This document shows positions 23,036 to 23,251 of a stretch of 24,690 nt of DNA, piece by piece. This stretch comes from a virus. The position numbers and the translations under genes are program-made. The stretch covers positions 1 to 24,690 of IMG/VR virus record IMGVR_UViG_3300023082_000035. One strand, given 5' to 3'. How positions within the stretch are numbered: position 1 is the stretch's first letter; each line of letters begins with the position of its first letter. The notes under the pieces were generated by a model. It had not been told where the DNA came from. It saw only the letters and a list, made by a program, of their open reading frames with translations, and did not search any database.

Positions 23036-23251
23036 CTAGTCCGCAATGTATTTTTGTTGTTTTGCAAGAGCCGCACCTACATGCATTAACCCCATATGAA
23101 AAGCACGCATCGCTAAAGTCTTATCAGCCGAATCTGGACACCTTTCATTTATTCCCTGAGCAAACTCTTTCACTTTATTGTAAAGCTCAGAATGATACGC
23201 CCTATCTTCTGCGTCAAATACTACACGGTTAAAAATTGAATCAATATCCAC
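23036..23251 (-). CDS. Acb2/Tad1-hairpin-like small protein (possible anti-CBASS sponge)
   Basis: This 71-residue protein starts with GTG at 23251 after GAGAG. It is two helices: YHSELYNKVKEFAQGINERC (residues about 19-38) and LAMRAFHMGLMHVGAALAKQ (about 46-65), joined by PDSADKT. The pattern YH-x(n)-Y-x-x-[IV]-[RK]...A-x-x-I-x-E-x-x-PxSxx[KE]xLA-x-[RT]-x-[LF]-x-x-[AG]-x-M-x-x-[AG]-A-[AL]-A fits the Acb2/Tad1 hairpin family. Characterised members bind cyclic di- and trinucleotides and so block CBASS (and in some cases Thoeris) signalling. The family fit is judged by eye; the usual MWANAAIAR ending is altered to MHVGAALAK here, so ligand binding is uncertain. It is the first gene of the minus-strand run. 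Confidence 0.58.
   Translation of the reverse strand: MDIDSIFNRVVFDAEDRAYHSELYNKVKEFAQGINERCPDSADKTLAMRAFHMGLMHVGAALAKQQKYIAD

What the first reader, a model, noticed from the sequence alone, without database searches (positions are those of the whole stretch)
23036..23251. Candidate anti-CBASS cyclic-nucleotide sponge (Acb2/Tad1 hairpin type)
The 71-residue two-helix protein fits the Acb2/Tad1 hairpin pattern (aromatic-His start, PxSxxKxLA turn, A-rich second helix). Members sequester CBASS signal nucleotides. The second-helix signature is diverged (MHVGAALAK rather than MWANAAIAR), so it may be a new variant with altered ligand choice. Its next-door Cys-rich gene could be a partner.
Basis: partly seen in the sequence, partly recalled or inferred. 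Interest (0 to 1): 0.72.

Follow-up and report, generated by a model that had tools for sequence, protein, structure and literature searches.

The report
Variant Acb2-type phage immune-signal sponge
A small bacterial-virus protein belongs to the Acb2/Tad1 hairpin family, which includes 'sponges' that mop up bacterial alarm molecules, but it falls in a little-noticed branch where two highly conserved residues are exchanged together, so it may soak up a different alarm molecule.

Summary
The 71-codon gene at 23036-23251 (-) is real, and its protein is homologous to the Acb2/Tad1 hairpin family: Pfam PF24729 E=1.1e-5, one bit under the curated cut-off. A profile of its own sub-class, built without it, gives 40.5 bits against 13.9 for the best of 5,000 shuffles. 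The AlphaFold model has the expected hairpin. Six relatives carry canonical family members at the same locus, one of them with a Tad2-like sponge gene in the same operon.

The substitutions are not random decay. In 100 non-redundant members, the positions equal to PaP2 Acb2 R67 and T74 are Arg/Thr in 80 and Ala/Arg in 12, including the window; Ala/Thr and Arg/Arg were never seen. The Ala/Arg ('ADK-R') class also occurs in isolated phages Myrna, ScoobyDoobyDoo and Tunturi_1. Best reading: a counter-defence sponge of Acb2 type with a shifted ligand set. Ligand binding was not tested and could be lost.

The Cys-rich neighbour is a core gene of the lineage, present in 35 relatives without a hairpin hit, so it is not a dedicated partner.

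Separately, this phage lineage appears to carry two ~1-kb inverted genome repeats.

The parts
23036..23251 (-). Acb2/Tad1-hairpin-type protein gene, 71 aa, GTG start (Ala/Arg class)
   Evidence: ORF; PF24729 26 bits, E 1.1e-5, cut-off 27; PHROG 1454 E 2.3e-7; class profile 40.5 bits; AF2 model pLDDT 86.9, helices 3-7, 14-37, 42-69
23258..23265 (-). likely ribosome-binding site AAAGAGAG (inferred)
   Evidence: sequence upstream of GTG printed
23105..23140 (-). codons 38-49, CPDSADKTLAMR: turn and start of helix 2 with the class-defining A42 and R49 (PaP2 Acb2 R67 and T74 positions)
   Evidence: alignments
22789..23022 (-). downstream Cys-rich 77-aa gene (C..H..CxxC); core gene of the lineage, not a dedicated partner
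   Evidence: homologue found in 40 of 58 portal relatives, 35 of them without a hairpin hit
22332..22796 (+). conserved opposite-strand gene of the locus (PHROG 3108, lysozyme-like in sequence)
   Evidence: PHROG E 8.7e-27; conserved order
21702..22277 (-). presumed terminase small subunit (inferred from position); fixes gene order
   Evidence: conserved in relatives; no Pfam hit above cut-off
19642..21270 (-). portal (head-tail connector) protein gene, used to find relatives
23473..23786 (+). inverted copy of the terminase large-subunit 3' end; edge of the inverted repeat beside which the hairpin gene lies
   Evidence: 99-nt exact inverted repeat with 1-99

Best explanation
The gene encodes a short Acb2/Tad1-hairpin protein that the phage most likely makes to sequester a nucleotide-type immune signal of its host (CBASS- or Thoeris-like) without cleaving it. 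It belongs to a distinct branch, here called the Ala/Arg or ADK-R class, in which the Arg before helix 2 has become Ala and the Thr two helical turns later has become Arg. The scaffold is kept (F7, A31, I34, C38-P39, S41, K44, L46-A47, M56, A60, A63) while polar and aromatic signature positions are replaced. I infer that the ligand set has shifted from that of canonical Acb2. Shown: homology, predicted fold, syntenic canonical members in the lineage, a Tad2-like gene in the same operon in one relative, a recurrent double substitution. Inferred: oligomer, ligand binding, the signal bound, the defence countered.
For: PF24729 E 1.1e-5. Ala/Arg-class profile without the window: 40.5 bits, E 5.6e-11; best shuffle 13.9. 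AF2 model pLDDT 86.9: short N-terminal helix plus two long antiparallel helices, the Acb2 protomer plan (PMC12043709, PMC10419184). Foldseek against viral models: top hits are named Acb2/Tad1 hairpin proteins, probability up to 0.97, among them that of Phabba, a phage whose protein is 75% identical to a member of the class, though E exceeds 0.1. Relatives L034, L050, L051, L087, L089, L108 have canonical members at the same place; the model of one (L086, the same gene as in L034) matches T4 Vs.4:cGAMP 7uq2 and Acb2 8h2j as best PDB hits. L087 has hairpin, Tad2-like (PF11195, 51.9 bits) and Cys-rich genes in one operon with overlapping codons. Arg/Thr 80, Ala/Arg 12, Ala/Thr 0, Arg/Arg 0 of 100. 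Class members score 44-53 bits in PF24729.
Against: Positions best tied to binding are changed: T4 Y8 (needed for dinucleotide binding, PMC12657218) falls on R9 in the ungapped alignments, PaP2 K26 on Y24, R67 on A42, T74 on R49. Even within its class the window is the outlier: it lacks FxYH and the class residues R52, E53 and T57. Foldseek against the PDB found no Acb2 for the window model, although it did for the canonical relative. Class placement in the tree is strong with all columns (0.999) but weak without columns 42 and 49 (0.29), and the window is not placed without columns 41-57. No host or defence system is known. No ligand was tested.
Confidence: 0.52

Rival explanations
1. The hairpin fold is kept but nucleotide binding is lost or detuned. 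The gene is a relic or an escape variant that no longer acts as a sponge, for instance under pressure from systems such as Panoptes that punish sponges.
For: Most signature residues are replaced in the window, and no close homologue (above about 40% identity) was found. Loss-of-binding acb2 variants are reported in T2, PaMx41 and T4 escapers (PMC12657218).
Against: The key double substitution is shared by 11 other non-redundant proteins from unrelated phages that otherwise keep FxYH, and those tested score well in PF24729, which points to a maintained variant. The ORF is intact with coding-like codon use.
Confidence: 0.25
2. It is an ordinary Acb2: same ligands (3',3'-cGAMP, other dinucleotides, cA3-type trinucleotides) despite sequence drift.
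For: Validated members are themselves very diverged: PaP2 and T4 Acb2 share little with the metagenomic consensus, and T4 lacks the Arg. Positions outside the NLEQ..M stretch vary widely.
Against: Thr at position 49 is kept in every solved member aligned (T4, PaP2, 9ptq, two Tad1), in 83 of 100 members at Thr or Ser, and is Arg only in this class.
Confidence: 0.15
3. A helical-hairpin protein of the family put to another use, for example a small regulator or virion component, unrelated to immune signals.
For: Family names rest on a few tested members. The gene lies next to packaging genes.
Against: The locus is a variable cargo site: the hairpin is present in few relatives, and other small genes or none stand there in others, which does not fit an essential virion part. 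A Tad2-like sponge gene shares the operon in L087.
Confidence: 0.05
4. Chance resemblance: an unrelated two-helix ORF.
For: Two-helix proteins are easily over-matched; the Pfam score is one bit under cut-off.
Against: 5,000 shuffles reach at most 13.9 bits where the window scores 40.5. PF24729 gave few matches in 767 genomes (8, 10; all but one over the cut-off).
Confidence: 0.03

Closest known systems
Ala/Arg (ADK-R) class of PF24729: Mycobacterium phages Myrna gp211, Phabba, ScoobyDoobyDoo gp210; Tunturiibacter phage Tunturi_1 gp101; IMG/VR L194-L197, L229-L235
   Same: Ala at the Arg position, Arg at the Thr position, [SG]-A-D-[KQ] turn, hairpin length; Phabba by 75% identity to ScoobyDoobyDoo only
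   Different: The window lacks FxYH and the class residues R52, E53 and T57; 39% identity to L195
Acb2 of Pseudomonas phage PaP2 (8h2j, 8h2x) and T4 Vs.4/Acb2 (7uq2)
   Same: Family profile, predicted protomer plan; canonical same-locus relative matches these structures
   Different: Window lacks the residues at the positions of Y11, K26, R67, T74; no insertion between the helices; ligand unknown
9ptq 'Acb2 homolog 43'
   Same: Short member of the family, best sequence match of the family profile in the PDB, E 2.1e-7
   Different: Keeps REKS..T (R and T); the window has ADKT..R
Tad1 (8kbb, 7uav)
   Same: Shares only the hairpin part (SRENA..T..EE.LMW)
   Different: Tad1 has an N-terminal beta-sheet domain (PMC12043709); the window protein is all helix and 71 aa
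Tad2-like (PF11195)
   Same: Neighbouring gene in relative L087, another sponge family
   Different: Unrelated fold; absent from the window record

Membership tests
Acb2/Tad1 hairpin domain (PF24729) | Significant profile similarity over the hairpin | tested here: met
   E 1.1e-5, residues 15-64 on profile 8-58; class profile 40.5 bits, sub-family I profile 29 bits, both without the window
Acb2/Tad1 hairpin domain (PF24729) | Pfam's curated gathering score, 27 bits (an annotation threshold, not a biological feature) | tested here: not met
   26.0 bits; members of the same class score 44-53 bits
Acb2/Tad1 hairpin domain (PF24729) | Two long antiparallel helices (after a short N-terminal helix in Acb2) | tested here: met
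   AF2 model helices 3-7, 14-37, 42-69, mean pLDDT 86.9; predicted, not solved
Acb2/Tad1 hairpin domain (PF24729) | Closest folds are family members | tested here: inconclusive
   Top viral-model hits are family proteins with probability up to 0.97 but E above 0.1; PDB search found none
Acb2 (canonical sponge) | Arg (PaP2 R67) and Thr (T74) at the start of helix 2 | tested here: not met
   A42 and R49; T4 Acb2 also lacks the Arg but keeps the Thr
Acb2 (canonical sponge) | Tyr of the dinucleotide pocket (T4 Y8, PaP2 Y11) | tested here: inconclusive
   R9 in the ungapped alignments; F12 only if three loop residues are deleted
Acb2 (canonical sponge) | Homo-hexamer | not testable with these tools
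   only single-chain prediction available
Acb2 (canonical sponge) | Binds cyclic oligonucleotides and blocks CBASS | not testable with these tools
   needs binding and plaque assays
Tad1 | N-terminal beta-sheet domain before the hairpin | tested here: not met
   71 aa, no strand in the model
Ala/Arg (ADK-R) class defined here | Ala at the Arg position together with Arg at the Thr position | tested here: met
   A42/R49; 12 of 100 members; monophyletic with the window, support 0.999, or 0.29 without these two columns

The most novel reading that the evidence does not exclude
The Ala/Arg class is a separate set of phage sponges whose pocket was rebuilt by coordinated exchange (Arg to Ala and Thr to Arg two helix turns on, usually with Glu to Arg and Trp to Thr). 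They capture an immune signal that known Acb2 and Tad1 proteins do not, and so point to a nucleotide defence signal not yet matched to any phage antagonist.
Probability: 0.2. Interest if true: 0.75.

Novelty: new variant of a known kind. Interest (0 to 1): 0.5.

Why it matters
Sponges reveal which signals bacteria use against phages. A branch of the family with an exchanged pair of near-invariant residues, present in cultured laboratory phages (Myrna and ScoobyDoobyDoo on Mycobacterium smegmatis; Tunturi_1), gives a short list of proteins to test for a different ligand. It also warns that a name such as 'Acb2/Tad1 hairpin protein' does not by itself say which signal is bound.

Tried and rejected
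A direct scan with the window protein found only L002/L003, which proved to be a chance match (FDAEDRAY) inside a DHH-type phosphoesterase. No match by tblastn in GenBank phages or phmmer in the PDB with the single sequence. Foldseek and VIA-align against the PDB gave only unrelated helical bundles for the window model; this says nothing either way, though the canonical relative's model did find Acb2. Cys-rich gene as partner: rejected. I first suspected one-off decay because the window lost 8 of 10 near-invariant columns of alignment A3. That set was biased by its own search pattern (NLEQ..M), so I drew members without that bias and then found the shared Ala/Arg class. PADLOC gave no defence hit for the hairpin. 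A search of 94 genomes with PHROG 1454 rang nowhere and is uninformative. An iqtree run exceeded the time limit, so FastTree was used. The papers with PaP2 residue detail (Huiting 2023, Cao 2024) are not held; the roles of K26 and R67 are from memory and unverified. The isolates MEP301 and Hodr have no inverted repeat, but they are distant relatives.

Full report
What was checked. The ORF at 23036-23251 on the minus strand exists as described: 71 aa with a GTG start, an AAAGAGAG six bases upstream, and coding-like codon use. The window is a 24,690-base IMG/VR virus record. Its portal relatives are 58 IMG/VR contigs, three of them near 80% identical over the portal protein and the rest 48-67%. 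One relative sits in a Burkholderiales metagenome bin, which is only a weak host hint.

Family. Pfam PF24729 (Acb2/Tad1 hairpin) matches at 26 bits, E 1.1e-5, one bit under its curated cut-off; PHROG 1454 matches at E 2.3e-7. To avoid circularity I built profiles without the window protein. Sub-family I (FxYH...NSREKSLAxTNLEQAVMWANAAIAR) scores it 29 bits against 10 for the best of 5,000 shuffles. Sub-family II, the type carried by its own phage relatives, does not score it at all. A later profile of the Ala/Arg class scores it 40.5 bits (best shuffle 13.9). The AF2 model (pLDDT 86.9) has helices 3-7, 14-37 and 42-69, the plan given for the Acb2 protomer in PMC12043709 and PMC10419184. Among viral models the top Foldseek hits are proteins named Acb2/Tad1 hairpin, including that of Phabba, but E exceeds 0.1, as expected for a short hairpin. 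A positive control with the canonical relative L086 (the gene of L034) returns T4 Vs.4 with cGAMP (7uq2) and PaP2 Acb2 (8h2j, 8h2x) as best PDB hits.

Locus. Gene order is conserved: terminase tail (opposite strand), cargo site, Cys-rich gene, PHROG 3108 gene (opposite strand), presumed small terminase, portal. The cargo site holds a hairpin gene in the window, L034, L050, L051, L087, L089 and L108, other small genes in L009, L010, L013, L015 and L021, and little or nothing elsewhere. L025 and L056 carry hairpin genes in another part of the genome. In L087 the hairpin stop overlaps the start of a Tad2-like gene (PF11195, 51.9 bits), which runs into the Cys-rich gene. A Tad2-type gene in the same operon is the best contextual support for a counter-defence role. 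The Cys-rich gene is found in 35 relatives without a hairpin hit, so it is not its dedicated partner.

The substitutions. Aligned without gaps to sub-family I, the window keeps scaffold positions but replaces the signature: T49 to R, N50 to A, E52 to H, Q53 to M, W57 to H, and R42 to A. Part of the apparent invariance came from the search pattern, so I drew members by Pfam profile from 767 genomes and added solved structures. Arg at 42 and Thr at 49 remain the rule there too. A scan with an alignment led by the window then found phage proteins that share the exchange: CPESADKTAAIRKVREAVMTANASVAC. More followed, including isolates: Tunturi_1 gp101, ScoobyDoobyDoo gp210 and Myrna gp211, with Phabba 75% identical to ScoobyDoobyDoo. 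Of 100 non-redundant members, 80 have Arg/Thr, 12 Ala/Arg, 8 other combinations, none Ala/Thr or Arg/Arg. These counts are of sequences, not independent events. FastTree joins all 12 with support 0.999. Without the two defining columns they still group, but with support 0.29, and without columns 41-57 the window is not placed. So class membership of the window rests mainly on the turn and helix 2.

How it may work. Known members bind cyclic di- and trinucleotides in separate pockets of a hexamer (PMC12043709). In T4 Acb2, Y8 and F82 matter for dinucleotides (PMC12657218). By alignment PaP2 Y11, K26, R67 and T74 fall on R9, Y24, A42 and R49. That K26 and R67 of PaP2 contact ligands is my recollection and could not be read here. 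An Arg moved by two helical turns could restore a positive charge near the same face with different geometry; this is inference. I therefore favour a sponge with a shifted ligand set (0.52) over lost or detuned binding (0.25) and unchanged ligands (0.15). The detuned option deserves attention because Panoptes punishes sponges, and natural or selected acb2 loss is reported (PMC12657218).

Side result. Bases 1-99 are the exact reverse complement of 23473-23571, inside the terminase gene. In 16 relatives a terminase tail fragment lies inverted beside the Cys-rich/hairpin locus. In two long contigs (G048, G024) both contig ends point, inverted and exact over assembly-overlap lengths, to the two edges of one internal segment of about 1.0 and 1.2 kb. 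The simplest map is a circle or circular permutation A-R-B-R' with inverted repeats R. In G010 the copies differ (95.7% over 115 bases), so there they are not a collapsed artefact. R carries a conserved DNA element, GAGAGTTnnnGGGnACCGGA, after the terminase stop (window 23915), perhaps the packaging site. Segment A is inverted relative to B in G024 compared with G048 and G036, although an assembler cannot resolve this across identical repeats. The hairpin gene lies about 220 bases from the repeat edge.

Noticed in passing
window 1-99 and 23473-24690; L056 7091-8074; L025 7021-8190: The phage lineage seems to have two inverted ~1-kb repeats (A-R-B-R') that carry the 3' end of the terminase gene; contigs from many metagenomes break at the repeat edges with exact overlaps of assembly-word length. 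Unusual for a ~34-kb terminase phage.
   Followed up: partly
window 23915-23934 (+); same place in L006, L023, L025, L029, L034, L036, L039, L044, L048, L052, L056, L081: Conserved DNA element GAGAGTTnnnGGGnACCGGA followed by C-runs, within a few hundred bases after the terminase stop inside the repeat; possible cos or packaging site.
   Followed up: partly
window 23377-23454 (-): tRNA-like gene (Rfam tRNA 49.9 bits) with good acceptor and T arms but an over-long anticodon arm (ARAGORN reads a 4-base anticodon), 18 bases from the repeat edge; no tRNA found at this place in 41 relatives.
   Followed up: partly
window 16887-18423 (-): Lambda P-like helicase loader and O-like replication genes stand between scaffold and major capsid genes; in relatives near 80% portal identity (L004-L006) those two head genes are adjacent, and in G010 the O/P-like genes lie elsewhere.
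   Followed up: partly
L087 332-577 (+): Tad2-like (PF11195) gene in an operon with a canonical Acb2/Tad1 hairpin gene and the Cys-rich gene: two sponge types side by side.
   Followed up: yes
L009 69-443, L015 49-429, L010 131-304, L013 416-962, L021 252-494: Other small genes without convincing Pfam match at the same cargo site; candidates for further counter-defence genes.
   Followed up: no
L176, L177, L179 (genome loci): Further PF24729 members with non-standard residues at the Thr position (Met, Met, Leu), L179 also without the Arg: other possible ligand variants.
   Followed up: no
L242 301-504 (+), cyanophage S-2L: An open frame left unannotated between tail genes of S-2L encodes a canonical Arg/Thr hairpin protein.
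   Followed up: no
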